Positions 915 to 22,389 of a DNA stretch of 28,391 nucleotides are shown piece by piece. The stretch is taken from contig JAKOZM010000179.1 of the NCBI GenBank assembly GCA_029779995.1, forward strand, positions 1 through 28,391, written 5' to 3'. The notes under the pieces are model-generated. The model had not been told where the DNA came from and did not search any database. It saw only the letters and a program-made list of their open reading frames with translations. A program made the position numbers and the translations under genes. The stretch comes from Actinomycetes bacterium. Lineage in GTDB: Bacteria > Actinomycetota > Actinomycetes > S36-B12 > UBA10799. The first letter of the stretch is position 1, and the number at the start of each line of letters is the position of its first letter.

Positions 915-1639
915 CCGGTCCCCGATCGGAAGCCGACTCCACGCACGGTGATGATGAAGCGGGCGCTGGCGGGGTCATCGTGGAGTTTGGCGCGCAGGTG
1001 GGATATGTGTGCGTCGATGAGTCGGTCGTCGCCGATCCAGGCCGGTCCCCAGACCTGCTCGATGAGTTGGCGTCGTGAGAGCACCTGCCCGGGCCGCTCG
1101 GTGAGGGCGTTGAGCAGGTCGAATTCGATGCGGGTCACCTCAACGGGTTGATCGCCGATCAGGACGGTGCGGGTGGCTGGATTCACTGTGAGGGATCCGA
1201 CCCGGCGGGAGGGTGCCTGGTCAGCGGGGGTGCTGGGGGGCGCGGTGGGTGTGCGGGGGCGGCGCAGGAGGGTCTTGATGCGGGCGATGAGGATACGGGG
1301 GCTGAAGGGTTTGGACAGGTAGTCATCTGCTCCGACGGAGAGGCCGATCAGGGTGTCCACCTCGTCTGTTCGGGCGGTGAGCATGACGATGTAGGCGTCG
1401 GTGAATGTGCGTAGCTGTCGACAGACCTCGATGCCGTCGATGCCGGGCAGCATGATGTCCAGGACGACCACGTCGGGGTGGTCGCGGCGGGCGATCTCGA
1501 CGGCCGTCTCACCGTCGCCGGCCTCGGCCACGGTGAAGCCTTCAGCGCGAAGGTAGCCGACGATGACGCGGCGAATCGATGCCTCGTCCTCGACCACCAG
1601 CGCGCGGGGGGCTGCGATGGGAGTCGTTGCCACGCTCAC
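911..1639 (-). CDS. OmpR-family response regulator (copper-type two-component system 1)
   Basis: DNA-binding response regulator of 242 residues. The receiver domain has the acidic pair E17/D18, phospho-acceptor D61 (VVVLDIMLPG), the conserved T of MLTAR and the K of SKPFSPR. A winged-helix OmpR/PhoB output domain follows (VEVTRIEFDLLNALTERPG to ITVRGVGFRSG). The GTG start at 1639 overlaps the TGA of the PepSY-like gene (GTGA); the longer open frame upstream is low-complexity Arg/His/Pro and unlikely to be translated. It closely resembles the regulator at 12939-13634, notably in the shared LDIMLPG and FTD.Y..MLTAR segments. The 11-base-spaced CTTCA repeats upstream of several operons here are plausible targets for one or both regulators. 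Confidence 0.94.
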   Translation of the reverse strand: MSVATTPIAAPRALVVEDEASIRRVIVGYLRAEGFTVAEAGDGETAVEIARRDHPDVVVLDIMLPGIDGIEVCRQLRTFTDAYIVMLTARTDEVDTLIGLSVGADDYLSKPFSPRILIARIKTLLRRPRTPTAPPSTPADQAPSRRVGSLTVNPATRTVLIGDQPVEVTRIEFDLLNALTERPGQVLSRRQLIEQVWGPAWIGDDRLIDAHISHLRAKLHDDPASARFIITVRGVGFRSGTG

Positions 1640-3231: not shown

Positions 3232-3310
3232 GATTGATTCCGTCCTTTCGCCTTTGTGCTCTCTGTGAATCAGTCTCGGCGTCCGGTGTTGCGCCGATCT
3301 CGCGAAAGTG

Positions 3311-3326
3311 TTGAGATTTCGTGAAG
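3311..3326 (-). promoter_or_regulatory. Degenerate response-regulator box upstream of cupredoxin operon
   Basis: In the gene direction this reads CTTCAcgaaatCTCAA: one perfect CTTCA half-site and a weak second one 11 bases away. It lies about 80 bases before the cupredoxin ATG, with the same orientation and spacing as the stronger boxes at 7823, 12541 and 12561. It is proposed by analogy; alone it would not stand out. Confidence 0.4.
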
Positions 3327-5840: not shown

Positions 5841-6485
5841 TCAGGACGAGGGCAAGTGGTTGCTGACCTCGGTTGCCAACTGGTCGGGGGCCAGCCACAT
5901 GGACGGGTATTCGCCGTACCAGCGTTGGGTGCCGGTCTTGTCGATCAGAACGAAACTGTGGCCCGGCAGTCCACCGTGCATACCCTTCCCGATCGTTCCG
6001 TAGGCAGTGGACAACCGGCCGTCGTCGAGGAGGAACGGCGTCTTGACGCCGTTCACCGTCATGTCGTGCATGATCTGCTCCTTGGTGTTCATGACCACGG
6101 GTAGCACGACGGTGTCCAACTTGTCGAAGGCGGCCTGTTTCTTCTCTATCGCGCCCATCTGTGCCAAGCATGCTTGGCACCCGGCCCCCTCGCTGAAGTA
6201 CAGCAGGACATTCTTCTTCCCGGCGTAGTCAGCCAAGCTGACCTGCTGGCCGTCGGTGTTGGTCATCGTGAACGGCGCAGCTGGGGTGGCGATGCCGCTC
6301 TGCTGGGGGCGACTGGTGACGAGCGCGGCGGCGATGAGGGCGGCCACAATCCCCGCGCCGATGATCCAGGCGATCATGACGGTGCGGCGGCGACGTCGCG
6401 TGCGCTCGGCTTCGCCGTGAGCGGCGTCAGCCTTGGCTTGGCGCTGTTCGGCGCGGGTGGGACGGTGTTCGTGCTGGATCGTCAC
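5841..6485 (-). CDS. TlpA-like membrane-anchored thiol:disulfide redoxin
   Basis: Extracytoplasmic thiol-redox protein of 214 residues. A charged cytoplasmic N-terminus (RRRRR) leads into one transmembrane helix (about 37-57), followed by an AhpC/TSA-redoxin-like domain starting APFTMTNTDGQQVSLADYAGKKNVLLYF. The active-site pair is C103-Q-A-C106 (GAGCQACLAQM). Further family-like elements are VNTK...PFLLDD and HSFVLIDKTGTQRWYGEYP. Its start overlaps the CcdA stop by ATGA. CcdA would carry electrons across the membrane to this protein, which could then reduce cysteine-containing envelope proteins, a useful activity when copper causes unwanted disulfides. The redox partner is inferred from the operon. 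Confidence 0.92.
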   Translation of the reverse strand: MTIQHEHRPTRAEQRQAKADAAHGEAERTRRRRRTVMIAWIIGAGIVAALIAAALVTSRPQQSGIATPAAPFTMTNTDGQQVSLADYAGKKNVLLYFSEGAGCQACLAQMGAIEKKQAAFDKLDTVVLPVVMNTKEQIMHDMTVNGVKTPFLLDDGRLSTAYGTIGKGMHGGLPGHSFVLIDKTGTQRWYGEYPSMWLAPDQLATEVSNHLPSS

Positions 6486-7489
6486 GGTACTGGCCTTTCT
6501 GTGCGGGACTGCGTACTCGTAGCCTCGGTGTCGGGGCAGGGATGGGGGTCGTGTGCCTCTGCGGCGCTCAAAGCCGTTTCGTGGCAGCCGTGGGGCTGAC
6601 CGAGGTCCAGGTCGGCGGCGTCAGTCAGGGTTTGGGCTGATCGGTCGCGCAGCATCGTCACGACGATGACCACGACAAGAGCCAGAAGAGCCGCGCCGAG
6701 GACGGGTTCGGGGATGGGCCAGGACTCGATGGTGGCAAATATCTTGGTTAGGAAGTCGCCGACGGCGACCTGGAAGCCGGGTCCGCTGGTCATGGTGCCC
6801 GTGTTGGCCAGGTAGAGGACGAACACGCCCATCACGGCGAACCCGATCGCCACAGCCACGTTGATCGTGTTCGTGTGGAGTTTGCGTCCGGCCACTGTGA
6901 GGGCGACGGGCTTGGCTTGCAGGAACCGGCGCTCGCCAAGGCGGAACCGGTCCCAGAGCAGCGCCATAACGAACAGCGGGAACGTCATGCCGAACACGTA
7001 CATCAACCCGAGAACGATGCCCCCGGCCGGGTTCCCGGACAGGGCCGACAAGGTCATGATGCCAGCGAGGACCGGAGCGCAGCAGGACGAGGCGATGCCG
7101 GAAAACACGCCGAGGGCGAAGAAGCTGGCGGAGTCGCCCCGGCGGGTATCTGGGGCACGCAGGAATGAGGGCATGCTCCACATCCGCCCGGACAGTGACC
7201 AGGCCGCCAGCAGCAGCATGAGGATGCCCCCGGCGAGGTAGAGGATTTGGTGGTAGTGGGTGATTGCCGCTGACAGTAGACTCATCCCCAGCGTGATGGG
7301 CACAAGCACGGTTGCCAGACCGGCGGCGAAGACGAACGTTAATGGCAGCAGCCGCCAGCGCCGGTTCTTCACCGCGACCGCCAGGTAGCTGGGGGCCAGG
7401 AACACGATGCAGCACGGGGCGAACAGGGCCACACCACCTGCGAAGAACGCCGCAATGATCGATCCGGTCGCGAACAGGTCGCCGTTCAC
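6482..7489 (-). CDS. CcdA/DsbD-type membrane electron carrier
   Basis: Polytopic membrane protein of 335 residues related to cytochrome c biogenesis protein CcdA, which moves reducing equivalents from cytoplasmic thioredoxin to extracytoplasmic thiols. The paired redox cysteines lie in FAPCCIVFLAPSYLAV (helix 1) and SGIASSCCAPVLAG (helix 4); each is a Cys-Cys pair rather than the usual single Cys. It has six core helices and an extra C-terminal helix (ALLALVVVIVVTML), then a His/Cys-containing tail (LGQPHGCHET, DPHPCPDTE) that could bind metal. The GTG start at 7489 overlaps the glutaredoxin-like stop (GTGA), and its own stop overlaps the TlpA-like start. It is longer than a minimal CcdA (about 200-250 residues). 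Confidence 0.92.
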   Translation of the reverse strand: MNGDLFATGSIIAAFFAGGVALFAPCCIVFLAPSYLAVAVKNRRWRLLPLTFVFAAGLATVLVPITLGMSLLSAAITHYHQILYLAGGILMLLLAAWSLSGRMWSMPSFLRAPDTRRGDSASFFALGVFSGIASSCCAPVLAGIMTLSALSGNPAGGIVLGLMYVFGMTFPLFVMALLWDRFRLGERRFLQAKPVALTVAGRKLHTNTINVAVAIGFAVMGVFVLYLANTGTMTSGPGFQVAVGDFLTKIFATIESWPIPEPVLGAALLALVVVIVVTMLRDRSAQTLTDAADLDLGQPHGCHETALSAAEAHDPHPCPDTEATSTQSRTERPVP

Positions 7490-7776
7490 AGCGCACCCCT
7501 CGTGGCGGTTGCTGCGCGGTCGAGTGCGCTTGTGAGCTGGCGCACTTTGCCACGTGGGAGGCGACCTTGGCTGAAGAACTGTCCGTCCACGAGAACAAGC
7601 GGGCTCATCGCTGCTCGATGCTGCTGGGTGAGCAAGAGCCCTTCGGATGTGCGCATGTCCAGCCGGATCAGTTGGACTGGGTAGCAGTCGGCCAAGTCAG
7701 ACAGGATCTGGTCAGCGTCGGCGCAGAAGTGGCAGGCGGGTGCCTGCACGATCGTTATGGTGGTTTCTTGTTCCAT
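7486..7776 (-). CDS. Glutaredoxin/thioredoxin-like protein with CxxC
   Basis: Small thioredoxin-fold protein of 96 residues from the ATG at 7776. The active site is C15-H-F-C18 in TITIVQAPACHFCADADQIL, and the cis-Pro region reads AAMSPLVLVDGQFFSQGRLP, a glutaredoxin-like pattern. Earlier starts exist (ATG 7800, TTG 7806), but they would crowd the regulator box at 7823-7838, and the conserved fold begins at MEQETTIT. It has no signal peptide, so it is probably cytoplasmic. Standing first in the operon with CcdA and the TlpA-like protein, it may feed electrons to CcdA or buffer Cu(I). Which start is used decides the leader length. Confidence 0.88.
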   Translation of the reverse strand: MEQETTITIVQAPACHFCADADQILSDLADCYPVQLIRLDMRTSEGLLLTQQHRAAMSPLVLVDGQFFSQGRLPRGKVRQLTSALDRAATATRGAL

Positions 7777-7822: not shown

Positions 7823-7838
7823 TGAAGAAACGATGAAG
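7823..7838 (-). promoter_or_regulatory. Response-regulator box upstream of thiol-redox operon
   Basis: In the gene direction this reads CTTCAtcgtttCTTCA: two perfect CTTCA half-sites exactly 11 bases apart, about 47 bases before the ATG at 7776. It matches the two boxes between the divergent operons at 12541-12576 in sequence, spacing and orientation. OmpR/PhoB-family dimers typically bind such 11-base tandem half-sites. Confidence 0.65.
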
Positions 7839-8055
7839 AAAGTCGTCAGTTTGCGCACGGGCGTTGTTCCTGGACAGCGGCACGATCATCGCGGTGGTCA
7901 ACCCCGTCATCCCCGCAGCCGGACGAAGAAGTTGCCGATTCCGCTGAGCGTCCCAGCAACTCGCTCAGACCGTGGTCGGCAGAGGAAGTTGCCGTCTGAG
8001 CCCGGGTCCGGCGGATAGTCGACCACGGTGCCAGCGTCGAGGTGTCTCGTGACCA

Positions 8056-10311
8056 TCAGACTCGTGCGCGGCGCAGTCGAAGGGCATTCACTATGACCGA
8101 AACGTTGGACAGGCTCATCGCGGCAGCGGCGATGATCGGGGACAGCAGCAGGCCCGTGAACGGGTAGAGCACTCCCGCGGCGATCGGGATCCCGAGAGAG
8201 TTGTACAGGAACGCGAAACCGAGGTTCTGTTTCATGTTGCGCACAGTCGCGCAGGAAACCCTGCGGGCGGCGCTGATGCCCCGCAGATCCCCCTTCACCA
8301 GGGTGATCTCGGCGGAGTCGATGGCGATGTCGCTGCCTGTGCCCATGGCGATCCCGATGTCGGCCTGCGCGAGCGCGGGGGCGTCGTTGATCCCATCGCC
8401 GGCCATCGCCACGACGTGTCCCTGCCGCTGCAGTTCCGCTACCAGGGCGAGCTTGTCGTCCGGCTTCACTCCCGACCGGTAGTCGTCGATGCCGAGTGAC
8501 TCTGCCACGTGGCGAGCCGGGCCAGCGGCGTCGCCGGTGGCCATGACGATGGTCAGGCCCTCGTGGTGCAGTTGTTCGACGGCCTTCGGCGTACTGGGCT
8601 TGACCTCATCGCGCAGTGTGACGAGTCCCGCCTCTCGGCCGTCGATGGCAACTCGGATGGTTGTCTGGCCGGCCGGTGCGCGGTCTTCCAGCTCCAGCGA
8701 CATCTTCACGCCCTGATCCCCCATGAGATCGGCGTTGCCGACCAGGACGAGGCGACCGCCCACCATCCCGCTCACGCCGAAGCCTGGCTTGGCCTGGAAC
8801 TCCTGCACCGGGGTGAGAGGTAGACCAGCGGCTGCCTCGGTGACGGCTCGGGCCAGCGGGTGCTCACTGCCCTTGTTGGCGCTGGCGGCCGCGCTCAGGA
8901 CCTCGTCGTGGGTGAATCCGTCAGCCGGGACAACACTGCTCACCGTCGGACGGCCCACCGTCAGGGTGCCCGTCTTGTCCACTATGAGGGTGTCGACCTC
9001 GCGCAGTCTCTCCATAGCGGCGGCGTCCTTGAACAGCACGCCATGCCGGGCGCCCAATCCACTGCCCACCATGACCGACATCGGCGTGGCCAGGCCCAGG
9101 GCACACGGGCAGGCGATGATCAGCACGGACACCGCGTTCACCAGGGCGTGCCCCCAGCTGGGTGCCGGGCCGAACACACCCCAGACCAGGAACGTCCCGA
9201 CCGCGATGCCGATCACGGCCAGGACGAACACCCCTGCGACCTTGTCGGCCAGACGTTGCATGGGCGCTCTGGAGCGCTGGGCCACGGCCACCATCTCCAC
9301 CACTCGCGACAGGACCGTGTCCGAGCCCACTTGGTAGGCCTCAACGATGAGGCTGCCGGTGGTGTTCACAGTGCCCCCGATGACCGTGTCGCCGGCTGCC
9401 TTCTCGGCTGGCACCGGCTCGCCGGTCAGCATCGACTCGTCCACGGCCGACCGACCGGACACCACGACACCGTCGACCGGCACCTTCTCCCCGGGGCGCA
9501 CACGCACCCGGTCGCCGACCTCGATCGCTGCCAGATCGACGTCTTCCTCGGTGCCATCGGCGTCGATGCGGCGGGCCGTGGACGGCGCGAGCTGCAGCAG
9601 GCCCTTGATCGCATCCCCGGTGGAGGCACGTGCTCGCAGTTCCAGCACCTGTCCGAGCAGGGTGAGGGTGCAGATGATGGCGGCCGCCTCGAAGTACACC
9701 GGGACCTTCCCGTCCTCCTTCAACGCGTCGGGGAAGATGCCGGGAGCGACCACAGCGAGCACGGAGTAGCTGTACGCCGCGGCGACACCCAGGCCGATCA
9801 GCGTCCACATGTTGGGACTGCGATGGCGCACCGATTGCACGGCCCACACGAAGAACGGACCCGCCGCCCACAGCACTACGGGGCTGGCCAGCACCAGTTG
9901 CGCCCACGGCATGACGTCCTTCGGCAGGGGCGCGAATCCGAGCATCGCGATGGACAGCACGGCCAGCGACAACGGGACCGACACCCAGAACCGCCGCAGC
10001 ATGTTCCGGTACTCCGCACGATCGGAATCGTCATCGACCTGCGGCGTCATCGGCTCCAGATGCATACCGCAGATGGGGCAGCGCCCCGGGTGATCCTGAA
10101 CGATCTCGGGATGCATGGGGCAGGTGTACAGGACCTTTGTGGCCGACGGGTGTGAGGGCCGCGGTTCCTCGTGATGGTGTGTGTGCACGTCGGCCTGTCC
10201 CTCAAGAACCAGTGTCATGCCGCAGATCGGGCATTCCGACGGGTGGTCGTCGACGACCTCGGGGTGCATGGGGCAGATGTAGCGAGAAGCTGTATCAGTG
10301 TGGTCCACCAC
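8056..10311 (-). CDS. Copper-exporting P1B-type ATPase
   Basis: Cu(+)-transporting P-type ATPase of 751 residues. The N-terminus carries two heavy-metal-binding repeats (about 12-36 and 62-86), each YxCPMHPE..xDHP..CPICGM, split by a His-rich linker (HTHHHEEP), instead of MxCxxC domains. Then come the membrane helices, the actuator loop ([11 protein letters not shown]), the metal site CPC (401-403) in [11 protein letters not shown], the phosphorylation site DKTGT (445-449), the SEHPLA motif, [14 protein letters not shown], and final helices with N-x6-YN-x4-P ([14 protein letters not shown]) and MSLSNVSV, which indicate Cu(+)-type 1B-1 selectivity. The GTG start has AGGAGG four bases upstream. 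It is probably cotranscribed with the DUF305 and oxidase genes 92 bases away; no regulator box of its own is visible. Confidence 0.97.
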
Positions 10312-10403
10312 GTGACCTCCTCAGACGTGTTCGATCTAGATACCCGGTTGCCGTTGGGTGATGCTGCGTCTCCTCACGGGATGCGGGTGCAGGCACGTCG
10401 CAC

Positions 10404-11036
10404 TCACTTCGCCAGCAGCTGCTGCATCGTCGCGATCTCCTGCTGCTGTCCGGTGATGATGGCGTCGGTGAGGGTCGTCACCTGACTGCTGTTCGACGCC
10501 TGCGCCTGCTGAGCCATCGAGATGGCGCCCTGATGGTGCGCGATCATCATGGTCAGCCACATCTGGTCGAAGTCGGCGCCCCGCGCCTGCTCCAGTTGTT
10601 GCATCTGCTCGGCGGTCATCATCCCAGACATCGTCATACCGCCCATGTCGTGGCCGCTGTGATCCATGCCTGCCGTGCCGCCGCCGTCGGTGGCGCCTGG
10701 CATCGCCGTCGGCGCGCCCCACGCCTGCAGCCACTGGGTCATCTGCTGGATCTCCGGATCCTGGGCACCCTTGATCTGCTCGGCCAGTTGCTTCACCTGC
10801 TCGGAGGCACCTGCCGCCGGATCGAGCGCAAGGTCGGCCATCTCGATCGCCTGTTGGTGGTGCGGGATCATCGACTGCGCGAATGCGATGTCTGTCGGAG
10901 AGCCCTGCATCATGGGGGCGGTCGCCACCGACTCCGTCGGCGAGGGCGCGCTGTCAGGGGTGCTGCTGGAGCACGCAGTCAGTGCTGCCACTCCCAACAC
11001 GGCGGCGGACATGGCGATGGTGCGATGGATCTGCAC
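10404..11036 (-). CDS. DUF305 lipoprotein, copper-binding
   Basis: Secreted lipoprotein of 210 residues. The signal peptide ends in a lipobox (VAALTAC, Cys 22), followed by a Ser/Pro linker. The DUF305 (ferritin-like) domain has two His-pair helices: AQSMIPHHQQAIEMADLAL (about 53-71) and LTMMIAHHQGAISMAQQA. Between them is a Met/His-rich insertion (GMDHSGHDMGGMTMSGMM) well suited to Cu(I)/Cu(II). The GTG start lies 16 bases after the oxidase stop, so the genes are cotranscribed. DUF305 proteins are common beside copper oxidases in actinobacteria and probably store or pass copper on the cell surface. A decayed relative lies at 15569-15728. Confidence 0.95.
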   Translation of the reverse strand: MQIHRTIAMSAAVLGVAALTACSSSTPDSAPSPTESVATAPMMQGSPTDIAFAQSMIPHHQQAIEMADLALDPAAGASEQVKQLAEQIKGAQDPEIQQMTQWLQAWGAPTAMPGATDGGGTAGMDHSGHDMGGMTMSGMMTAEQMQQLEQARGADFDQMWLTMMIAHHQGAISMAQQAQASNSSQVTTLTDAIITGQQQEIATMQQLLAK

Positions 11037-11052
11037 GGATTATCTCTCTTTC

Positions 11053-12498
11053 TCAGGTGGTGTAGTCGAGGCGGGTCATCATGCCCGCCTCAGCGTGGTA
11101 GGCGTTGTGGCAGTGGAGCATCCAGCGCCCAGGGTTGTCGGCGACCAGGTCGACCTCGGCGCGGGTCATCGGCGGCAAGAGCACGGTGTCTTTGCGGGGA
11201 CCGGTCCCTCCGGCCGGCCCCACCTGGAACGTGTGGCCGTGCAGGTGCACCGGGTGCGTCATCATCGACATGTTCGACAACCGCAGCCGCACGGTTTGGC
11301 CCGCCTGAACCGTGAGCGGTTCTGCCCGGTCGTACGTGTCACCGTTGATGGTCCAGACGTAGGGCGCCATGGAGCCGGACAGGACGAGGTCGTAGGTCTG
11401 CTGGGGATCGCTGCGCGGCAGCCGCACGCTTTCGTCGGACAGCAGCACGTCAGCACCGGCGGGGTAGGCGGAGAGCTCGGCAGGAATGGGGCTGGCGGGC
11501 AGGCGGCCCGCGGCGCTGCGCAGAACCGCCATGGCGTATCCGCTCTTACCCGCAGGTTGGGCGACCACCGGGAAGACACCGTCGCCGGCCTGCACGACAA
11601 CGTCGTACCGTTCGCCCATGCCGATCCGCAGCGACTGCGCATCGACCGGCTGCACCGGATAGCCGTCGGTGTGGGTGATCGTCATGCGGTGCCCGCCCAC
11701 AGCGACGGTGAAGATGGTGTCCGCGGCCGCGTTGATGATGCGAACCCGGATCCTGTCGCCGGGCTTGACTCGCAGGACGTCTGGGTCTGCGGCAGCCCTT
11801 CCGTTGATCAGGTAGAGGGGGTAGGTGACGTCGCCGCCGTCGGAGCCCATGTCCATGCCGCCCATGTCCATCATGCCGCCCTGATCACTGCGCTGACCTG
11901 CGGAGACCAGGCCGTCGAAGATCTGCTGCGGGTCCTGGCCCACGCCCTGCGTCCAGTCGTCCAGCATGAGCACCCAGTCGTGGTCGTAGCGCGCGGTCTC
12001 GCCGGGGTCCTCCACGATGAAAGGGGCGTACAACCCGGTGTCGAGTTGCAGGCCCGTGTGGGGGTGGAACCAGTGGGTGCCCGCGTCCGGCACGACGAAG
12101 TCGTAGGTGAAGGAGGTGCCGGACGCGATCGCCGGTGTCGTCACGCCGGGGACCCCGTCCATCGGATTGGGAACCGCCAGGCCGTGCCAGTGCACGCTGG
12201 TCTCCTCGGGAAGGTCGTTGGTGACGGTGATGCGCACCCGCTCCCCGGCCTTCGCGCGGATCGCCGCACCCGGCACACGGTCGCCGAACGTCCACGCAGT
12301 CGCCGCACGGCCTCCCAGGTCGATCTGTGCTTCCCGGGCGCGCAACCTGATCTCCTGCGCGACGGGGCCGGTGGGTGAAGACGAGGGGACAACCGTGGCT
12401 GTGCCTCTCGGCGAGGAACAGGCGGCGAGAGTCGCTGCGGCGGCGGTGCCAAGCGACATGGCCAGGAATCGGCGACGCGACATCGAATAACTCACCAC
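11053..12498 (-). CDS. Tat-exported multicopper oxidase (CueO/CopA-like)
   Basis: Copper oxidase that probably converts Cu(I) to less toxic Cu(II) outside the membrane. It has 481 residues. A Tat signal (SRRRFLAM) is followed by a possible lipobox (TLAACSS). All four copper-binding motifs are present: HWHGLAVP (103-106), HWFHPHTG (142-147), HPVHLHGHTFQV (415-426) and HCHNAYHAEAGM (462-473, with the type-1 Cys, His and axial Met). A Met-rich loop (MMDMGGMDMG) resembles the methionine insert of CueO. The GTG at 12498 has CAGGG seven bases upstream; the ATG at 12483, directly before the Tat motif, is also possible. First gene of the oxidase/DUF305/ATPase operon, divergent from the second two-component operon. 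Confidence 0.96.
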   Translation of the reverse strand: MVSYSMSRRRFLAMSLGTAAAATLAACSSPRGTATVVPSSSPTGPVAQEIRLRAREAQIDLGGRAATAWTFGDRVPGAAIRAKAGERVRITVTNDLPEETSVHWHGLAVPNPMDGVPGVTTPAIASGTSFTYDFVVPDAGTHWFHPHTGLQLDTGLYAPFIVEDPGETARYDHDWVLMLDDWTQGVGQDPQQIFDGLVSAGQRSDQGGMMDMGGMDMGSDGGDVTYPLYLINGRAAADPDVLRVKPGDRIRVRIINAAADTIFTVAVGGHRMTITHTDGYPVQPVDAQSLRIGMGERYDVVVQAGDGVFPVVAQPAGKSGYAMAVLRSAAGRLPASPIPAELSAYPAGADVLLSDESVRLPRSDPQQTYDLVLSGSMAPYVWTINGDTYDRAEPLTVQAGQTVRLRLSNMSMMTHPVHLHGHTFQVGPAGGTGPRKDTVLLPPMTRAEVDLVADNPGRWMLHCHNAYHAEAGMMTRLDYTT

Positions 12499-12540
12499 TT
12501 GACCCTGACAGAGGTGCTTAGAGGTGCTGCCCAGATTCGA

Positions 12541-12556
12541 TGAAGTTTCGATGAAG
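12541..12556 (-). promoter_or_regulatory. Response-regulator box upstream of multicopper oxidase operon
   Basis: In the gene direction this reads CTTCAtcgaaaCTTCA: two perfect CTTCA half-sites 11 bases apart, 43 bases before the oxidase GTG. A second box in the opposite orientation follows four bases later for the divergent operon. Confidence 0.7.
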
Positions 12557-12560
12557 GGGT

Positions 12561-12576
12561 CTTCACGGAGTCTTCA
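12561..12576 (+). promoter_or_regulatory. Response-regulator box upstream of SHOCT/regulator/kinase operon
   Basis: CTTCAcggagtCTTCA, two perfect half-sites 11 bases apart on the plus strand, 67 bases before the SHOCT ATG. With the oppositely oriented box at 12541-12556 it makes a mirrored control region, suggesting that this two-component system controls its own operon and the oxidase operon together. Confidence 0.7.
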
Positions 12577-12642
12577 TGGAAACCCCAAGCCGATCTCCAT
12601 CGGCGGCCCGGAGGCTGGAGGTGTCGTCGAGACCGGAGGTGG

Positions 12643-12912
12643 ATGACGATGATGAACCACTACGGCTCCTACGGTGGCTGGCACGGCTGGATGCTGATGG
12701 CGATGTGGGTGTGGCCGCTCGCGGTTGCTGCCTGCATCTGGGCCCTTGTGGCGTTGACCAGGGACCGCCGCGCGGCGCCTTTCAAGCGACGCGAGGAGAC
12801 GACCTCGGACATCCTCAGGCGAAGGTTCGCCAGCGGCCAGATCAGCCAACAGGAGTACCTGGATGCGGCCGCGATCCTGGACAATGACAGCAGTCGCGCG
12901 ACCCATGGGTGA
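12643..12912 (+). CDS. Small SHOCT-domain membrane protein
   Basis: Protein of 89 residues. The N-terminus is Met/His/Trp-rich (MTMMNHYGSYGGWHGW); a single transmembrane helix follows (about 17-38, MLMAMWVWPLAVAACIWALVAL), then a basic linker and a C-terminal SHOCT motif (SDILRRRFASGQISQQEYLDAAAIL). It parallels the SHOCT protein at 2133-2405 and, like it, belongs to an operon with a response regulator and kinase. The Met/His-rich outer segment could contact copper and report to the kinase; that role is speculative. Confidence 0.88.
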   Translation: MTMMNHYGSYGGWHGWMLMAMWVWPLAVAACIWALVALTRDRRAAPFKRREETTSDILRRRFASGQISQQEYLDAAAILDNDSSRATHG

Positions 12913-12938
12913 TCGTCACGCGGCGGAATGGAGAGTGG

Positions 12939-13634
12939 ATGTCGGCACAACTACGGGTCCTGGTGGTCGAGGACGAACCGGATCTGGCGGCGGTGATCGC
13001 GGCCTACCTGCAGGATGAGGCCTTCGACGTCGACATCGCGGGAACCGGCCCGCAAGCGGTCACGATGGCCAAGGACCTGCACCCCGATCTCATCGTGCTG
13101 GACATCATGCTCCCCGGCTTCGACGGGCTTGAGGTGTGCCGCCGTATCCGCACCTTCACCGACTGTTACGTGATCATGCTGACCGCGCGTGACGACGAGA
13201 TCGACAAGGTGATCGGGCTGTCCATGGGCGCCGACGACTACCTCGTCAAGCCCTTCTCGCCCCGCGAACTGACGGCCCGCATCCGCGCGATGCTGCGGCG
13301 GCCGCGCACGCTCGGGGCGGAATCATCGGGGCTGCATGCCCGCATGTTCGGCGCGCTGCGGCTGGACCCCGACGCCCGCAAGGTCTGGATCGACCACGTC
13401 GAACTGGATCTGACCCGCACCGAGTTCGACCTGCTCGACGCCCTCACGACCGCACCCAAGCGCGCCTTCACGCGCAGGCAGCTCATCGACGCGGTGTGGG
13501 GCGGTGAGTGGTACGGGGACGAACACATCGTGGATGTCCACGTCGGCCACCTGCGCAAGAAGCTTGATGACGACCCCGGCTCCCCGCGCTACATCAGGAC
13601 CGTGCGCGGCATCGGGTACGGGATGGTGTCGTGA
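12939..13634 (+). CDS. OmpR-family response regulator (copper-type two-component system 2)
   Basis: DNA-binding regulator of 231 residues. The receiver domain has E11/D12, phospho-acceptor D55 (IVLDIMLPG), the T of MLTAR and the K of VKPFSPR; a winged-helix OmpR output domain follows (LDLTRTEFDLLDALTTAPK to IRTVRGIGYGMV). The ATG at 12939 is chosen because GGAGAG precedes it and MSAQLRVLVVEDE is a normal family start; a GTG at 12909 overlapping the SHOCT stop would add ten residues. The stop overlaps the kinase GTG (GTGA). It is the best candidate for binding the CTTCA-N6-CTTCA boxes, two of which lie in its own upstream region. Confidence 0.95.
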   Translation: MSAQLRVLVVEDEPDLAAVIAAYLQDEAFDVDIAGTGPQAVTMAKDLHPDLIVLDIMLPGFDGLEVCRRIRTFTDCYVIMLTARDDEIDKVIGLSMGADDYLVKPFSPRELTARIRAMLRRPRTLGAESSGLHARMFGALRLDPDARKVWIDHVELDLTRTEFDLLDALTTAPKRAFTRRQLIDAVWGGEWYGDEHIVDVHVGHLRKKLDDDPGSPRYIRTVRGIGYGMVS

Positions 13635-14758
13635 AGCGGCGCAGTCTGGCCGCGCGGCTGTTCACCGCCCAGTTGCTCGTCATCGCCACCACGTTCATTG
13701 CCTTGCTCGTCACCGTCGTGCTCATCGCCCCGGGCCTGTTCCTGCACCACCTTCGCATGACGGGGGAGGACTCGCCGGTGGTGCAGCTGCACGCACAGGA
13801 GGCCTTCGAGACCTCCGTCGGCCTGGCCCTGATGGCCGCGGCGACCGTAGCCATCGTCGCCGCGATCCTGTTGTCGTGGTTCCTGGCCCGCAGGGTCAGC
13901 CGCCCGATCACGCAGCTGGCGGCGTCCGCGGAGGCTGTGGCACACGGCAATTACGACGTTGTCGTGACCGAAACCGGCTTCGGTACGGAGTTGCGCACGT
14001 TGTCACAGTCGTTCCAGGACATGGCCGACAGTCTGGCGACCACCGACGAGGCGCGCACGCAGATGCTCTCCGACCTCTCGCATGAGATCCGCACCCCGCT
14101 GGCCACGCTCGAGGCGCATATCGACGGCCTCGAGGACGAGGTGATCCCCACGACCGCGGCGACCTACCATGTGATGCGTGGCCAAGTCCACCGGTTGCGT
14201 CGCCTGGCCAGTGACGTCCGCCTGGCGGCGCAGGCGCAGGAACACGCGCTCGACCTGCACCCGACGGCGACGAAGGCCAGCGACCTCGTGCACTCGGCGT
14301 GCGCGCTGTACGAACCGCGCTATCGGGACAAGGGCGTGCTGCTCGACGACCGCTCTCGCCACGACCGCGAGATGGTCGTTCGCGTGGACCGGGACCGGAT
14401 GCAGCAGGTCCTCGGAAACCTGCTGGACAACGCCCTGCGGCACACCCCCGCCGGCGGAACCGTGTCGGTGGGTTGCCACCAGAACGGGCAGGCCGTGGAG
14501 ATCGCGGTGACCGACTCGGGCGAAGGCATCGACCCCGCCGACGTGGACCGCGTGTTCCAGCGTTTCCAGCGGCTCGACACCTCCCGCCAATCGGACTCCG
14601 GTGGCAGCGGGCTGGGACTGACCATCGCCCGCGCCCTCGTCCAGAGCCAGCACGGGGATGTGACCGCGCACAGTGCCGGGCTTGGGACTGGCAGCACGTT
14701 CACGATCAGGCTGCCGCAGCAGACGATGCCCACCAAGGGGACGCCGCCGACCCGGTAG
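13631..14758 (+). CDS. Sensor histidine kinase of two-component system 2
   Basis: Membrane kinase of 375 residues. Two transmembrane helices (about 11-38 and 62-86) enclose a very short extracytoplasmic loop (HHLRMTGEDSPVVQLHAQEAFE) with three His and one Met, which could sense copper. A HAMP linker follows, then the H-box with H151 (LSHEIRTPLATL), N-box LLDNALRHTP, G1 DSGEGID and G2 GGSGLGLTIA. The GTG start overlaps the regulator stop. The last dozen residues (QTMPTKGTPPTR) are read antisense to a decayed membrane-protein gene (14722-15000), so the natural tail was probably altered when that DNA arrived. Confidence 0.95.
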   Translation: MKRRSLAARLFTAQLLVIATTFIALLVTVVLIAPGLFLHHLRMTGEDSPVVQLHAQEAFETSVGLALMAAATVAIVAAILLSWFLARRVSRPITQLAASAEAVAHGNYDVVVTETGFGTELRTLSQSFQDMADSLATTDEARTQMLSDLSHEIRTPLATLEAHIDGLEDEVIPTTAATYHVMRGQVHRLRRLASDVRLAAQAQEHALDLHPTATKASDLVHSACALYEPRYRDKGVLLDDRSRHDREMVVRVDRDRMQQVLGNLLDNALRHTPAGGTVSVGCHQNGQAVEIAVTDSGEGIDPADVDRVFQRFQRLDTSRQSDSGGSGLGLTIARALVQSQHGDVTAHSAGLGTGSTFTIRLPQQTMPTKGTPPTR

Positions 14759-15000
14759 AAGCCCACTGCGATGAGGTCCGCAGGGCCGCGCCAACTGCCT
14801 CCTCCAATGGTGAGGCGGAGCACGGACCGGTCAGGGACAGGAACCACGGCCCGGCCACCAGACCCGCCCTGCCGGTCGGCCGCTCCGCCCAGGTGGTGCA
14901 GGCACCCCCGCGTGACCGCCACCAGTTCGGTGATCGCCAGGGTGTCGGCAAGGCCCACCGGGGCCGCCATGACCAGCAGGAGGTTCCACGGCGGGTGCTC
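14722..15000 (-). pseudogene. Decayed copy of the 17593-18258 membrane protein family
   Basis: Minus-strand frames give pieces of the intact protein encoded at 17593-18258: PPWNLLLVMAAPVGLADTLAITELV against QPWNLLIFMAIPVILAETLAITELA, then in another frame GRAGLVAGPWFLSLTG against NRWAGLIAGPWFLGITA, then WRGPADLIAV and GGVPLVGI against WHGPADLIAV and AGVVPLVGI. At least two frameshifts separate the pieces, and both ends of the gene are missing. The divergence suggests a separate homologue rather than a fresh duplicate. Its far end overlaps the last codons of the kinase gene. Confidence 0.85.
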
Positions 15001-15131
15001 GATTGGCGGGAACGGTCAAAGAGGCGTCGAGACCAACTGGACCCTTTCAGCGGAAGAGCCCATCCTGCATTCCCGTGCGAAGTGTGCCCGGGTGAACCGT
15101 CACCAAACCTTGACCGTTCGTCGGGGGAAAC

Positions 15132-15147
15132 GTTCAGGAGTGCTTGC
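15132..15147 (+). promoter_or_regulatory. Weak response-regulator box upstream of small Met-rich protein
   Basis: GTTCAggagtgCTTGC on the plus strand: two imperfect CTTCA-like half-sites 11 bases apart, about 56-71 bases before the ATG at 15203. Spacing, orientation and distance fit the stronger boxes, but each half-site deviates. Confidence 0.3.
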
Positions 15148-15202
15148 GAACCTGAAGGTGAACGGCATTTCAGTCGGGATACCAACACCTAGGAGGACGA
15201 TC

Positions 15203-15466
15203 ATGAACCACAAGACGGACCTGAACGACACGGCACCGGTCACCACGGCCCGTGCCGCAGAGTCTCCGGCAACTGGCGGCCACGGCTTGGGACACACGCG
15301 CATGATGATGCTCATGTGTCTGCCCATGCTGGCGCTGACAGCCATCCTGATCGTCACCGGGGTGTGGGGCTGGGGTTCGGTCCTGCTCCCGGTGATGTGC
15401 CTGGGCATGATGGCCGTGGGCATGGTTGTCATGGCGCGGATGGGACGCAGTGGCACAGGCCACTGA
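15203..15466 (+). CDS. Small Met/His-rich membrane protein, DUF2933-like
   Basis: Protein of 87 residues preceded by an excellent ribosome-binding site (AGGAGG, ATG at 15203). After a polar N-terminus with GGHGLGHTR come two hydrophobic segments (about 34-55 MMLMCLPMLALTAILIVTGVW and 57-80 SVLLPVMCLGMMAVGMVVMA) with many Met and two Cys. The pattern, His-containing lead, MMMLMC.PM and a second helix with clustered Met, is like the small DUF2933 proteins found in metal-resistance loci. The Met/Cys faces could bind Cu(I) in the membrane. The family assignment is tentative; the coding call is firm. Confidence 0.85.
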   Translation: MNHKTDLNDTAPVTTARAAESPATGGHGLGHTRMMMLMCLPMLALTAILIVTGVWGWGSVLLPVMCLGMMAVGMVVMARMGRSGTGH

Positions 15467-15568
15467 CCCGAAGCCGCCTGGCGCGGGCACGGGACCCGTT
15501 CTCCCTCAGGCCCACCGGCAGCCGCGGCGGGAACGCCGCGCACATCGCATTCCCCAGTTGGCACGGCC

Positions 15569-15728
15569 GCTCAGGTCACCGCGCTCGCCAGGCAGATCAA
15601 GACGGCGCAGGACCCCGAGCTCGCCCAGATGACCGGCTTTCCCCCAGTAGGTTGGCCCCTTCGCCCAGGCGATGCTCGACGGGCAGACCACCGAGACCGA
15701 CGAGATGAAGGGTAGGCTCACCTTATGA
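15569..15728 (+). pseudogene. Remnant of a DUF305 gene
   Basis: One frame reads AQVTALARQIKTAQDPELAQMTG, matching KQLAEQIKGAQDPEIQQMT of the intact DUF305 lipoprotein at 10404-11036. After a shift in frame, FAQAMLDGQTTETDEMKGRLTL with a stop at 15726-15728 matches the end of a DUF305 domain. The first His-pair helix, the middle and the signal peptide are gone. The last bases overlap the start of the next gene and appear to supply its promoter. Confidence 0.7.
15713..15718 (+). promoter_or_regulatory. Leaderless -10 element (TAGGCT)
   Basis: TAGGCT stands six bases before the ATG at 15725, and no ribosome-binding site is present. The same TAGGCT plus six-base spacing precedes argG at 27363. 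This is the usual layout of leaderless actinobacterial transcripts. Confidence 0.5.
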
Positions 15729-16636
15729 GACGCCGCGCACTGGCGGCCACCACGATGGCCGCGGCACTTGTGCTCGCCGGATGCTCCGCCACCGGCACAG
15801 GCCCGGCCGCCGAACCCCCATCGACCCCTGCCGCCACGTCGACCGGCGCTACACCGACGGGAACCGCAGTGCAGGTGGACGGTACGGCGTGGGAGCACGT
15901 GCACGGCCTGGCCCTCGATGGCCAGCGTCTGGTGGTTGGCACCCATCAGGGACTGTGGGGCCAGGACCCGGGCCAGGACCCGGTGCAGGTCAGCGACACC
16001 GCGTTCGACGTGATGGGCCTTGCGTTGGACGGGGACCGGTGGCTGGCATCGGGGCATCCCGCGGCCGGGCAGGACGCCCCCGACGACCTCGGGCTGCAGG
16101 CCTCCACCGACGCAGGTGTCACCTGGGCGCCGGTGAGCCTGCAGGGTGAGGTCGACTTCCACCGCCTCGTTGCTGCGGCCGACACGGTCATGGGTATGTC
16201 CGCCCACGACGGAAAGTTGCTGCGCTCCACTGACGGCGGCACCACCTGGGACGACCTCGGCACCCCGGCTCTGTTCGACCTGGCCGTGGACCCAGCCCAG
16301 CCGAGGACCGTGGTCGCGACCACGCAGAAGGGCCCGGTGCGCTCCACTGACGGCGGCACCACGTTCACCCCCATTCCCGACGCCCCACTAGTTGCGTTCC
16401 TGGCCTGGACCAACCGCACCCTGTACGGGCTGGCCCCCGATGGGACCCTGCAGGCCTCGACCGATGGCGGGACCACCTGGGAAGCGCGCGGGAACGCCGG
16501 CAGCGGCCAACCCGGGGCGCTGGCCGCCGACGGGGACACCGTCGTCGCGCTCACCGGCAGTGTTGTCACGCAGTCCACCGACGGTGGGGCCACATTCGCA
16601 CCCCGCCTGAACCTAATCGGTGCGCAGGGCCACTAA
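15725..16636 (+). CDS. Asp-box (BNR) beta-propeller lipoprotein
   Basis: Secreted lipoprotein of 303 residues. The signal peptide ends in a lipobox (LVLAGC, Cys 20), followed by a Thr/Pro/Ala-rich linker and a propeller-like domain. It has five Asp-box turns: STDAGVTW, STDGGTTW, STDGGTTF, STDGGTTW and STDGGATF, each about 40-60 residues apart, as in sialidase/BNR and photosystem-stability-factor folds. No sialidase catalytic Arg triad is evident, so an enzymatic role is not supported. Similar Asp-box lipoproteins are known near actinobacterial copper genes, but what this one binds is unknown. It is transcribed away from the second two-component system. Confidence 0.9.
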   Translation: MRRRALAATTMAAALVLAGCSATGTGPAAEPPSTPAATSTGATPTGTAVQVDGTAWEHVHGLALDGQRLVVGTHQGLWGQDPGQDPVQVSDTAFDVMGLALDGDRWLASGHPAAGQDAPDDLGLQASTDAGVTWAPVSLQGEVDFHRLVAAADTVMGMSAHDGKLLRSTDGGTTWDDLGTPALFDLAVDPAQPRTVVATTQKGPVRSTDGGTTFTPIPDAPLVAFLAWTNRTLYGLAPDGTLQASTDGGTTWEARGNAGSGQPGALAADGDTVVALTGSVVTQSTDGGATFAPRLNLIGAQGH

Positions 16637-16692
16637 CGCCGGCGCGCACCGACCCACCCCCCATCGACCGAAGACGAGTGGGCCGATGCCGT

Positions 16693-17311
16693 ATGAATGC
16701 ACTCACCCCTGCCGTCGTGGCCGTGGCGGCGGCGTTAACCTGAGTGGTTGCGCCGCCGGCACCGCCGCGGTGGCTACATCTACCGACGCGACAGCGACGA
16801 CGGGCGCTGCCACGCCCACGAACCCAGCCGCCGAGGGCGGTGTGACGCTGCCCGACCAAGCACTACTGTCGACAGCGTCGAGGTGACAGTCACTGGCGTC
16901 ACCGTCGACACCACAGAAGCCCGCGCACTGGTCACCCTGGACACCCACGCGGGCTCCCTGGACGGCGACCTGTCCGCGAGCACTCTCACAGTCGCCGGCG
17001 CCCGTATCGGCCAGGCCACCTGGTCGGGCGACCCGCCAGGAAGCCACCACCGCAGCGGACAACTGACATTCCCCGGTACCAGCGCCGGTCCCGGCGACGA
17101 CGTCGAACTCGCCGTGTCCGGGCTTCCCGAACCGGTCGTGTTCACCTGGAAGGTGCCCGCCACCAGCCAGACCGCGCCCTGGGCCGAGACCCCCGCGACC
17201 ACAGGCGCTGCCGAGGCCCGCGCTCCGGCGCCCGTGGCGGATATCGTCTGTGGCCGCCTTCCCTGCGCTTCGGTTCTCAGACAGATGTCCGCACAGTCGA
17301 GGTGGGCGTAA
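16693..17311 (+). pseudogene. Frameshifted secreted lipoprotein gene
   Basis: The parts of one lipoprotein appear in three successive frames. An ATG at 16693 gives a signal-peptide start (MNALTPAVVAVAAALT, then TGA). A second frame continues with a lipobox and linker (LSGCAAGTAAVATST to GVTLPDQ, then stop). A third frame gives a beta-rich domain (VDSVEVTVTGVTVDTTEARALVTLD...VELAVSGLPEPVVFTWKVP) to the stop at 17311. Codon composition is coding-like throughout, so two single-base indels, natural or from sequencing, would explain it. The repaired protein would have about 200 residues. I do not recognise its family. Position suggests cotranscription with the Asp-box lipoprotein. Confidence 0.65.
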
Positions 17312-17402
17312 ATGTCCTTGCGCCGGTGTGGTGAATACCTGCCCGGCGTCGCCCGGGCCCGCACCTCTCGCCCCTCCGCGGAAATCCGCCGCAGTCGTCG
17401 CG

Positions 17403-17418
17403 TGAAGCCTTCGTGAAA
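17403..17418. promoter_or_regulatory. Isolated response-regulator-like box
   Basis: TGAAGccttcgTGAAA on the plus strand (TTTCAcgaaggCTTCA on the minus), 11-base spacing. Unlike the other boxes it has no gene start downstream in the expected direction, so it may be a relic or a chance match. Confidence 0.25.
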
Positions 17419-17445
17419 GTCCACCTCGACATCAGTCGCGTACCC

Positions 17446-17480
17446 GCCACACCCACCTCCCGCAGGGAGGTGGGTGTGGC
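17446..17480. terminator. Strong bidirectional hairpin
   Basis: A perfect 16-bp stem (17446-17461 with 17465-17480) closed by the three-base loop GCA; the arms are CCACCTCCC-type and GGGAGGTGG-type. It lies between the convergent genes ending at 17311 (plus) and 17593 (minus), so it can stop transcription from both sides. No T-tract follows. Confidence 0.8.
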
Positions 17481-17527
17481 CACATCGCGGCGCGGCCGCA
17501 GGCTGTGTTGGTGACCACGAACACCGA

Positions 17528-17559
17528 CGGGAACGCTGGCAACAGTGCCGGCGTTCCCG
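17528..17559. terminator. Second hairpin between convergent genes
   Basis: Arms CGGGAACGC (17528-17536) and GCGTTCCCG (17551-17559) continue inward through a T-G wobble to GGC/GCC, giving a 13-bp stem with the loop AACAGT. On the plus strand it is followed by a pyrimidine-rich stretch. It lies 34 bases past the stop of the minus-strand gene. Confidence 0.65.
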
Positions 17560-17592
17560 CCTTCTCGTAAGAGGCCTCGACTGGACCAGTGG

Positions 17593-18258
17593 CTACATGC
17601 GCATGCCGGGCATCGTGTCCCCGCCCGGCATCGTGTGCTCTGGGAACCAGCCCAGCAGGGTCGGATCCAGCATCCCGAAGATCATCGCGACGTGCGCCGC
17701 GACCAGGAACACCCCGACGAAGATCGCGTGCAACTTCATCCGCGCCCGGCCACCCTCGCGACCCAGTACGCCCAGTTCGATCAGCGTGATACCCACCAGC
17801 GGCACCACACCGGCTAGGTAGGCGAACACCGCGATCAGGTCAGCGGGCCCGTGCCAGCCCGAGCCGCTCGTCAGGGGCACGACCGCGTTCTTCAACAGGT
17901 AGGCGGTGATCCCCAGGAACCACGGCCCGGCGATCAACCCGGCCCACCGGTTCAGGGCATGCACCCATGGCTTGACGGCGCCCTGGGTGAACAGCACCGC
18001 CAGCTCCGTGATCGCCAGAGTCTCCGCCAGGATCACCGGTATCGCCATAAAGATCAGCAGGTTCCACGGCTGGTTCGCCGCGAGCAGTCCCATGTAGTGC
18101 GTCATCGAGCCGACGTCACCGCCGGCCACGTTCGGCAGTGACCAGGCGATCCCGACAGCGAGGACGCCGACGCCAGCGGCGATGGCGAGCCCGCGGCGGT
18201 TGACCGGCACTTGCTGCGTCTCGAGGGCGGTGTCTTGACCCTTACTGGTGATCGTCAC
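17593..18258 (-). CDS. Multi-spanning membrane protein with Met-rich tail (DUF6803-like)
   Basis: Membrane protein of 221 residues with about five or six predicted helices (GLAIAAGVGVLAVGIAW; PWNLLIFMAIPVILAETLAITELAVL; AGLIAGPWFLGITAYLL; PADLIAVFAYLAGVVPLVGITLIELGVL; AIFVGVFLVAAHVAMIFGML). The tail (EHTMPGGDTMPGMRM) holds one His and four Met, suitable for copper. The GTG start has AGGAGG six bases upstream. A decayed homologue lies at 14722-15000, so this family was present at least twice in the island. I recall similar permease-like proteins under a DUF6803 label, but the name is tentative. A regulator-like box lies 80 bases upstream. The role may be membrane copper handling. Confidence 0.88.
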   Translation of the reverse strand: MTITSKGQDTALETQQVPVNRRGLAIAAGVGVLAVGIAWSLPNVAGGDVGSMTHYMGLLAANQPWNLLIFMAIPVILAETLAITELAVLFTQGAVKPWVHALNRWAGLIAGPWFLGITAYLLKNAVVPLTSGSGWHGPADLIAVFAYLAGVVPLVGITLIELGVLGREGGRARMKLHAIFVGVFLVAAHVAMIFGMLDPTLLGWFPEHTMPGGDTMPGMRM

Positions 18259-18337
18259 GGTTTCCTCCTGTTACCGGTACATCCGGCGCTCGCGCCTCAA
18301 CGTAGCGGCACATCGCGAAGAAACCCCAGAGGAACCA

Positions 18338-18353
18338 TGAACGTTCTATGAAG
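18338..18353 (-). promoter_or_regulatory. Response-regulator box upstream of the Met-tailed membrane protein
   Basis: In the gene direction this reads CTTCAtagaacGTTCA: one perfect half-site and one with a single change, 11 bases apart, 80 bases before the GTG at 18258. Orientation and distance match the other boxes. Confidence 0.5.
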
Positions 18354-19590: not shown

Positions 19591-19688
19591 GCTGATCGTT
19601 CCTCTCCCGCGGTTTTCGATTGCGGCAGAAGGATACGTCGGGGGTCTGACACACTCGGGAAAACTCATCAACGACTTTGAAGTCGCAG

Positions 19689-20648: not shown

Positions 20649-20793
20649 TGGCCGCCCCCTGTGATCCTTAGTGCCAGATTAGCCTGGGGGCTGCGGCACT
20701 TCGCCTTGAGTCGCGTGGCCCCTCCCGCTATCGCCCCCAATCGCGTCGTGCAGTTCACGGTCCGCTGAGTTGCTGCACCCGGCTGCGGTGGGA

Positions 20794-21339: not shown

Positions 21340-21360
21340 AGGATGCGCCGGGCGCATCCT
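21340..21360 (-). terminator. Hairpin terminator
   Basis: AGGATGCGCC (21340-21349) and GGCGCATCCT (21351-21360) are perfect inverted arms around one base; realistically an 8-bp stem with a five-base loop. It begins four bases after the stop codon of the minus-strand gene at 21365. Confidence 0.75.
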
Positions 21361-21364
21361 TTGC

Positions 21365-22231: not shown

Positions 22232-22389
22232 CTAACAAAGCATCACGCGTGTGGAACGATCACGCGATGCCTACCTCAGGTCTGGGGCGTAGATGGGTGA
22301 TAGGGGGATAGAGATCAGTCTGCCCGGTACCTGTGACATGGCAGTCCCGGCACGCGTCACACCGCACATAATGGCCCCTTCCGAGGCGC

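What the first reader, a model, noticed from the sequence alone, without database searches (positions are those of the whole stretch)
7823..18353. A shared CTTCA-N6-CTTCA box defines a copper-island regulon
Seen: perfect pairs of CTTCA spaced 11 bases, all oriented the same way relative to the gene, lie 43-67 bases upstream of three operons (7823-7838 thiol-redox, 12541-12556 oxidase, 12561-12576 SHOCT/regulator/kinase). One-mismatch or weaker forms lie upstream of 18258 (18338-18353), 15203 (15132-15147) and 3231 (3311-3326). Known: OmpR/PhoB-family dimers bind tandem half-sites with 11-base pitch. Inference: one or both regulators here bind these boxes and control efflux, oxidation and thiol-repair genes together.
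Basis: partly seen in the sequence, partly recalled or inferred. Interest (0 to 1): 0.78.

Follow-up and report, generated by a model that had tools for sequence, protein, structure and literature searches.

The report
Conserved copper-regulator box before operons
Short paired DNA repeats in front of several operons of a copper island look like binding boxes of a known type of copper-sensing regulator, and many relatives of that regulator have the same box or a one-letter variant of it that goes with a change in the part of the protein that reads DNA.

Summary
The three perfect CTTCA-N6-CTTCA boxes are real and above chance. On the other strand they match the CopR box of Corynebacterium glutamicum, proven there by EMSA and mutation, so the box is known. 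(2) The box recurs at the same 11-base pitch before copper genes and copRS across Actinomycetota, also before ccdA-redoxin operons. (3) A -10-like element stands at a fixed offset in 63 of 79 sites; 5 of 6 window sites have it. (4) A sister group of regulators goes with CTTGA-N6-CTTGA, together with two recognition-helix residues; cause is not shown. Regulator 12909-13634 is the likely binder; 911-1639 is less supported but not excluded. No binding or copper response was tested. Best reading: a multi-promoter CopR regulon, new variant of a known kind.

The parts
12541..12556 (-). CopR-type box CTTCATCGAAACTTCA before MCO-DUF305-P-ATPase operon
   Evidence: perfect pair; matrix without window rank 1, 30.2 bits
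12561..12576 (+). CopR-type box CTTCACGGAGTCTTCA before SHOCT-like/regulator/kinase operon
   Evidence: perfect pair; rank 2, 24.8 bits
18338..18353 (-). box CTTCATAGAACGTTCA before DUF6803 gene
   Evidence: one mismatch; rank 3, 18.7 bits
7823..7838 (-). box CTTCATCGTTTCTTCA before glutaredoxin-like/CcdA/redoxin operon
   Evidence: perfect pair; rank 4, 16.7 bits; boxes before related ccdA operons
   Evidence: rank 5, 15.2 bits; -10 at the expected offset
3311..3326 (-). weak box CTTCACGAAATCTCAA before cupredoxin / second two-component operon
   Evidence: rank 6, 12.4 bits; -10 at the expected offset
12502..12507 (-). -10-like CAGGGT for the MCO operon
   Evidence: A...T at offset 50 from box start
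12611..12616 (+). -10-like GAGGCT for the SHOCT-like/regulator/kinase operon
   Evidence: A...T at offset 51
18299..18304 (-). -10-like TACGTT for DUF6803
   Evidence: A...T at offset 50
15148..15153 (+). -10-like GAACCT for 15203
   Evidence: A...T at offset 51
3272..3277 (-). -10-like GAGACT for the cupredoxin operon
   Evidence: A...T at offset 50
12909..13634 (+). CopR-type OmpR-family response regulator (RR1), recognition helix VDVHVGHLRKKL
   Evidence: Response_reg + Trans_reg_C; group of box-carrying regulators
13631..14758 (+). sensor histidine kinase (CopS-type)
   Evidence: HAMP, HisKA, HATPase_c
12643..12912 (+). SHOCT-like short membrane protein, 89 aa
   Evidence: translation; no Pfam match; called SHOCT-like by position and look, as in the annotated loci
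11053..12483 (-). multicopper oxidase
   Evidence: Cu-oxidase_3/_2/Cu-oxidase; start by translation
10404..11036 (-). DUF305 protein
   Evidence: Pfam
8056..10311 (-). copper-type P-type ATPase with heavy-metal binding domains
   Evidence: E1-E2_ATPase, HMBD; TIGR01511 above cut-off
7486..7776 (-). glutaredoxin-like CxxC protein, 96 aa
   Evidence: translation with CHFC; no Pfam match for the 106-aa form
6482..7489 (-). CcdA/DsbD-type membrane protein
   Evidence: DsbD_TM
5841..6485 (-). redoxin
   Evidence: AhpC-TSA/Redoxin
17593..18258 (-). DUF6803 protein with Met/His-containing tail
   Evidence: Pfam, translation
15203..15466 (+). 87-aa Met-rich small protein
   Evidence: translation; no Pfam match
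911..1639 (-). second OmpR-family regulator (RR2), less likely binder
   Evidence: Pfam (longer form); outside the CTTCA group; relatives' sites

Best explanation
The boxes are operators of the island's own CopR-type response regulator (12909-13634). Excess copper outside the membrane is sensed by the kinase 13631-14758, which phosphorylates the regulator; it binds the paired half-sites as a head-to-tail dimer on one face of the helix (11-base pitch), about 46-61 bases before the start of transcription, and helps RNA polymerase at a promoter with a -10 but no clear -35. One regulator thereby switches on the oxidase/DUF305/efflux-ATPase operon, its own operon, the thiol-redox operon, DUF6803, and probably the 15203 gene and the cupredoxin/second two-component operon. 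Shown: boxes, their conservation, pitch, direction, gene context and promoter register. Known for a relative: binding and copper-dependent activation by CopR. Inferred: binding, phosphorylation and copper response in this organism, and the transcription start.
For: Box matches the core of the CopR operator of C. glutamicum on the other strand; three-base changes in it abolish binding, and activation depends on copRS and copper there. Matrix without window: 6 sites at 12 bits or more against a mean of 0.12 in 50 shuffles, each before an island gene. In 20 annotated plasmid loci 16 of 19 perfect pairs at gap 6 have an annotated start within 300 bases (or overlap it); other gaps 0-20 give 0-4 perfect pairs each. 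In the wider set 45 of 59 perfect pairs read into a panel gene (copper genes or copR) within 900 bases against 2 of 19 pairs at eight control gaps (window included). Regulators with Gly in the helix, 69 loci: 42 CTTCA pairs at gap 6, 0-3 at the other gaps from 0 to 12. Fixed -10: 63 of 79, window's three perfect sites included; three window boxes not among the 79 (18338, 15098, 3311) all obey the rule. Nine of 10 related ccdA genes (60% identity or more, window left out) have a box within one mismatch upstream.
Against: No binding, footprint or expression data for this organism. No whole genome is held for the window, so genome-wide enrichment in it could not be tested. A strict pattern in 396 genomes finds 23 sites (reversed control 6), and only 6 of 21 fetched regions hold panel genes, 2 of those a distant regulator-kinase pair only. 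The thiol-operon box lacks the -10 at the usual offset. 31 of 56 Gly-His regulators had no perfect CTTCA pair within 3 kb. In C. glutamicum the site seemed to be the only one in the genome. In the nine best-scoring regulator loci CTTCA was not the most enriched tandem word: TACGT was, from two loci of one genome.
Confidence: 0.82

Rival explanations
1. The second regulator, 911-1639, binds some or all of the boxes too, at least the 3311 box of its own operon.
For: RR2 is 50% identical to the regulator of the Corynebacterium cassette, almost as much as RR1 (53%); its own operon carries the weak 3311 box. Two of its four nearest relatives (L240, L243) have box-like sites with CTTCG halves ahead of the regulator, 15.7 and 23.4 bits, both with the -10 in register.
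Against: RR2 groups with those four outside the 76-row CTTCA group; no perfect CTTCA or CTTGA pair within 3 kb of the four and no tandem 5-mer at gap 5-7 shared by four or more of the five. The CTTCA boxes of the other two relatives (L271, L273) are on contigs that also carry an RR1-type regulator. Helix of RR2 is IDAHISHLRAKL.
Confidence: 0.22
2. The boxes belong to a phosphate-type regulator (PhoP/RegX3 class, GTTCA-type repeats of 11-base pitch, recalled).
For: Same pitch; the 18338 box has one GTTCA half.
Against: Perfect GTTCA pairs at gap 6 occur in 1 of 56 regulator rows; gene context is copper.
Confidence: 0.02
3. Chance repeats in a GC-rich island.
For: The strict pattern also matches sites far from copper genes in whole genomes.
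Against: Shuffle controls, gap controls, gene context and the fixed -10.
Confidence: 0.01

Closest known systems
CopRS regulon of Corynebacterium glutamicum (CopR box TGAAGATTTnnTGAAGATTT; PMC3140484)
   Same: Same half-site TGAAG/CTTCA and 11-base pitch; OmpR-family regulator next to its kinase; divergent multicopper oxidase operon, copper ATPase, thioredoxin-like gene; autoregulation.
   Different: There one site serves two divergent operons and seemed the only one in the genome; here several boxes, one per operon, each reading towards its gene, most with a -10 at fixed offset, and a thiol-redox operon with a box of its own.
M. tuberculosis PhoP tandem-dimer recognition (5ED4; PMC4832192)
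   Same: OmpR/PhoB-family dimer on direct repeats of 7 bases with a 4-base spacer (11-base pitch); recognition helix aligns without gaps.
   Different: Different half-site (TCACAGC) and regulon.
CutRS of Streptomyces (PMC12802291)
   Same: Actinobacterial two-component system; two activating sites lie 62 and 69 bases before the start.
   Different: CutR site is TAWATAAA and its targets include HtrA-type proteases.

Membership tests
CopR operator (C. glutamicum type) | direct repeat TGAAG at 11-base pitch | tested here: met
CopR operator (C. glutamicum type) | full nine-base unit TGAAGATTT in both repeats | tested here: not met
   first units of the window boxes are TGAAGTTTC, TGAAGACTC, TGAAGAAAC; the pooled consensus of relatives is TGAAGATTCGATGAAG: core shared, flank differs. 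I therefore call the boxes CopR-type, not identical
CopR operator (C. glutamicum type) | lies between copRS and a divergent operon with a multicopper oxidase | tested here: met
   12541/12561 between MCO and SHOCT-like/RR1/kinase
CopR operator (C. glutamicum type) | bound by phosphorylated CopR | not testable with these tools
   needs EMSA or footprint
CopR response regulator | receiver plus winged-helix domain, in one group with Corynebacterium CopR | tested here: met
   53% identity to the plasmid-borne regulator; same 76-row group, SH-aLRT 94 in a quick tree, not starred
CopRS two-component system | induction by copper | not testable with these tools
   no expression data
PhoP/RegX3-type boxes (half-site recalled) | GTTCA half-sites | tested here: not met
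   no perfect GTTCA pair at gap 6 in the window, 1 of 56 rows in all

The most novel reading that the evidence does not exclude
CopR-type regulators of Actinomycetota fall into DNA dialects, CTTCA-N6-CTTCA and CTTGA-N6-CTTGA (and perhaps CTTCG in the RR2 group), set by two neighbouring residues of the recognition helix (Gly-His or Gly-Asn against Ala-Asn; the second aligns with the base-contacting Tyr220 of M. tuberculosis PhoP), with Ala-His regulators using mixed sites. The dialects drive one promoter plan: half-sites in 11-base register, the upstream two strong, and a -10 at offset 50-51. This would be a natural specificity switch in the OmpR/PhoB family, readable from sequence.
Probability: 0.45. 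Interest if true: 0.75.

Novelty: new variant of a known kind. Interest (0 to 1): 0.57.

Why it matters
If true, it turns a single-site copper switch known from one organism into a predictable multi-promoter regulon in many Actinomycetota, ties thiol-disulfide genes to copper control by a shared operator, links genes of unknown function (DUF305, DUF6803, SHOCT-like and Met-rich small proteins) to the copper response, and offers natural groups of regulators in which one base of the half-site changes together with named helix residues, so that the DNA-reading rule of OmpR/PhoB regulators can be tested directly.

Tried and rejected
I raised the rival's odds (0.10 to 0.22) and lowered the best explanation's (0.86 to 0.82) for that. 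Whole-genome pattern search as proof of specificity: not clean; 15 of 21 regions with a strict match hold no panel gene, and 3 of 19 control regions gave weak regulator/kinase hits. Contrast test of helix residue against dialect: 3 pairs on starred branches, none going the wrong way, sign test not significant, so cause is not shown. A simple 'Ala gives CTTGA' rule: Ala-His regulators (10 rows) have 3 CTTGA, 2 CTTCA and 6 mixed pairs, so Ala alone does not decide. Text search for TGAAGATTT gave 335 papers; the 40 listed were of no use. CutR was checked as a known source of such boxes and rejected (passages). That I found no paper on the multi-promoter regulon or the CTTGA form rests only on the listings in an open-access library; subscription papers were not searched.
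Full report
OBSERVATION. Three perfect CTTCA-N6-CTTCA pairs lie at 7823-7838 (-), 12541-12556 (-) and 12561-12576 (+); allowing one mismatch gives five sites in the window against 0.72 expected, and no shuffle of 100 reached five. MCO, DUF305 and P-ATPase run in one direction behind the 12541 box, so efflux is covered by it if they form one operon; regulator and kinase follow a SHOCT-like protein behind the 12561 box; the thiol genes follow the 7823 box.

THE BOX IS KNOWN. On the other strand the pair reads TGAAG-N6-TGAAG. The CopR operator of Corynebacterium glutamicum is TGAAGATTTgaTGAAGATTT; three-base changes inside it abolish binding, phosphorylation raises affinity, and the site activates divergent copper operons (passages of PMC3140484; review PMC3353115, passages). 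Of 21 promoters of putative targets tested there, only the copR promoter was bound. The regulator 12909-13634 is 53% identical to the regulator of a Corynebacterium plasmid cassette (C. marinum, L049); the tree rows of L049 and pLEW279b are identical, and the paper gives the pLEW279b region 97% nucleotide similarity to that of C. glutamicum. The C. glutamicum protein itself was not fetched.

CONSERVATION. Around related regulators I scanned six of the eleven loci from genome contigs and 20 plasmid loci chosen for spread among the hits (alone matched at least 5000 records). In these 26 loci perfect pairs number 24 at gap 6 and 0-4 at each other gap from 0 to 20. In the 20 plasmid loci 16 of 19 perfect pairs at gap 6 lie within 300 bases upstream of, or over, an annotated start. 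Sites within one mismatch stand before copR, SHOCT or MCO genes, DUF305, P-ATPase, a four-helix copper protein and others. Counted by hand, window left out: of 16 sites with a single gene near that is not copR, 15 read CTTCA towards it; of 5 with copR alone, none does. A matrix built from relatives only puts six sites at the top of the window: 12541, 12561, 18338, 7823, 15098 and 3311; at 12 bits or more 50 shuffles give a mean of 0.12 sites, the window 6.

WIDER TEST. A strict pattern in 396 Actinomycetota genomes gave 23 sites in 21 genomes against 6 for the reversed pattern. Of 21 fetched regions (22 of the 23 sites) 6 held panel genes, two of these only a distant regulator-kinase pair; 0 of 19 control regions held copper genes, 3 of 19 gave weak regulator or kinase hits. 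The pattern alone is thus not specific. Starting instead from the regulator I assembled 121 regulators with their surroundings: the matches listed in those three calls, the plasmid loci, two contig loci and the window. Among the ten best matches eight have a matrix hit within 400 bases before the regulator; among the other twenty two do, both of CTTGA form. Of perfect CTTCA pairs in 70 loci of Gly-class and a few other regulators, 45 of 59 read into a panel gene within 900 bases, against 2 of 19 pairs at eight control gaps. The link to thiol genes recurs: of 10 other loci with a ccdA at least 60% identical, 9 have a box within one mismatch upstream (L039 has none); of 4 with a more distant ccdA, 2 have one. 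Some of these boxes may also serve a divergent copR.

PROMOTER PLAN. Downstream of the box, A and T four bases apart stand at offset 50 or 51 from the box start in 63 of 79 non-redundant exact sites (window's three included); the median for other offsets is 3 (with a looser set 46 and 49 of 117 at the two offsets). This is a TANNNT-like -10 that begins 33-34 bases after the box and puts the box at about -61 to -46 (inferred). In the window MCO (CAGGGT), SHOCT-like (GAGGCT), DUF6803 (TACGTT), 15203 (GAACCT) and cupredoxin (GAGACT) obey it; the thiol operon does not. The sites 18338, 15098 and 3311 were not among the 79, so their agreement is an independent check.

DIALECTS. In 21 regulator loci of lower rank (G115 included) a search over all 5-mers found CTTGA as the most enriched tandem word at gap 6: 29 pairs against 0-4 at other gaps to 15. 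In the nine best loci CTTCA came second to TACGT, which stems from two loci of one genome. Most regulators of the CTTGA loci have Ala-Asn where the others have Gly-His in the recognition helix. In the full set, Gly-class regulators (69) have 42 CTTCA and 1 CTTGA pairs at gap 6, Ala-class (37) 4 and 33. By locus, for those with a clear dialect, the table is 28/1 and 2/22, after dereplication 22/1 and 2/19 (relatedness not otherwise corrected). Among the 68 rows added after the rule was noticed, 16 of 39 Gly-His rows have a perfect CTTCA pair within 3 kb and 1 a CTTGA pair; of 8 Ala-Asn rows 3 have CTTGA pairs and 1 a CTTCA pair; of 9 Ala-His rows 3 have CTTGA and 2 CTTCA pairs. Two more Ala-Asn loci (L284, L285) have a CTTGA pair farther off. 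Ala-His rows are mixed and Gly-His rows also use hybrid sites (16 of 56 pairs). CTTGA sites keep the -10 register (18 of 28, median 2) and show further half-sites at +22 and +33 (3 and 10 of 28 perfect). The two residues align with Ser219 and Tyr220 of M. tuberculosis PhoP, of which Tyr220 contacts bases in the crystal structure (passages of PMC4832192). The dialect follows the tree, with only three contrasts on starred branches, so that the residues cause the switch is a hypothesis.

WHICH REGULATOR. RR1 lies in the CTTCA group (76 rows, SH-aLRT 94, quick tree, not starred). RR2 lies outside it with four relatives. No perfect CTTCA or CTTGA pair is within 3 kb of these, but a matrix scan of their whole loci finds sites: CTTCG-type ones ahead of the regulator in L240 and L243, with the -10 in register, and CTTCA ones in L271 and L273, whose contigs also hold an RR1-type regulator, as the window does. 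So the 3311 box may be read by RR1, which would make a cascade, by RR2 itself, or by both.

LIMITS. No whole genome is held for the window. No binding, expression or copper data were available. Dialect and helix classes were defined after seeing part of the data. Some loci are related; dereplicated numbers are given where made. The literature check covers an open-access library only.

Noticed in passing
regulator loci of the Ala-Asn class, e.g. L142-L147, L163, L166-L171, L283-L286: A second operator form, CTTGA-N6-CTTGA, with further half-sites at +22 and +33 and a -10 at offset 50-51 in many, before SHOCT-like, DUF305, MCO and other genes.
   Followed up: yes
L240 3528, L243 6758: Box-like sites with CTTCG/CTTTG halves and the -10 in register, ahead of RR2-type regulators; perhaps a third dialect.
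   Followed up: partly
window 3-3231: A second two-component system (regulator 911-1639, kinase 3-914, cut by the window edge) in one run of genes with a SHOCT-like protein (2133-2405), a 166-aa protein and a His-rich cupredoxin (2425-3231); its promoter has a weak CopR-type box, hinting at a cascade or autoregulation.
   Followed up: partly
window 4740-5297: Serine recombinase (resolvase) between the two gene groups, in keeping with a mobile or plasmid-borne island.
   Followed up: no
window 12530-12567: Additional 11-base-register matches flank the 12541 box (12530 and 12552 score 11.0 and 9.6 bits), so regulator arrays longer than a dimer are possible.
   Followed up: partly
L149, L150: TACGT pairs at gap 6 (4 and 7) in two loci of one genome, nature not examined.
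   Followed up: partly
window 18814-22884: Several long open frames without a Pfam match above its cut-off (e.g. 19689-20648, 21365-22231); not identified.
   Followed up: no
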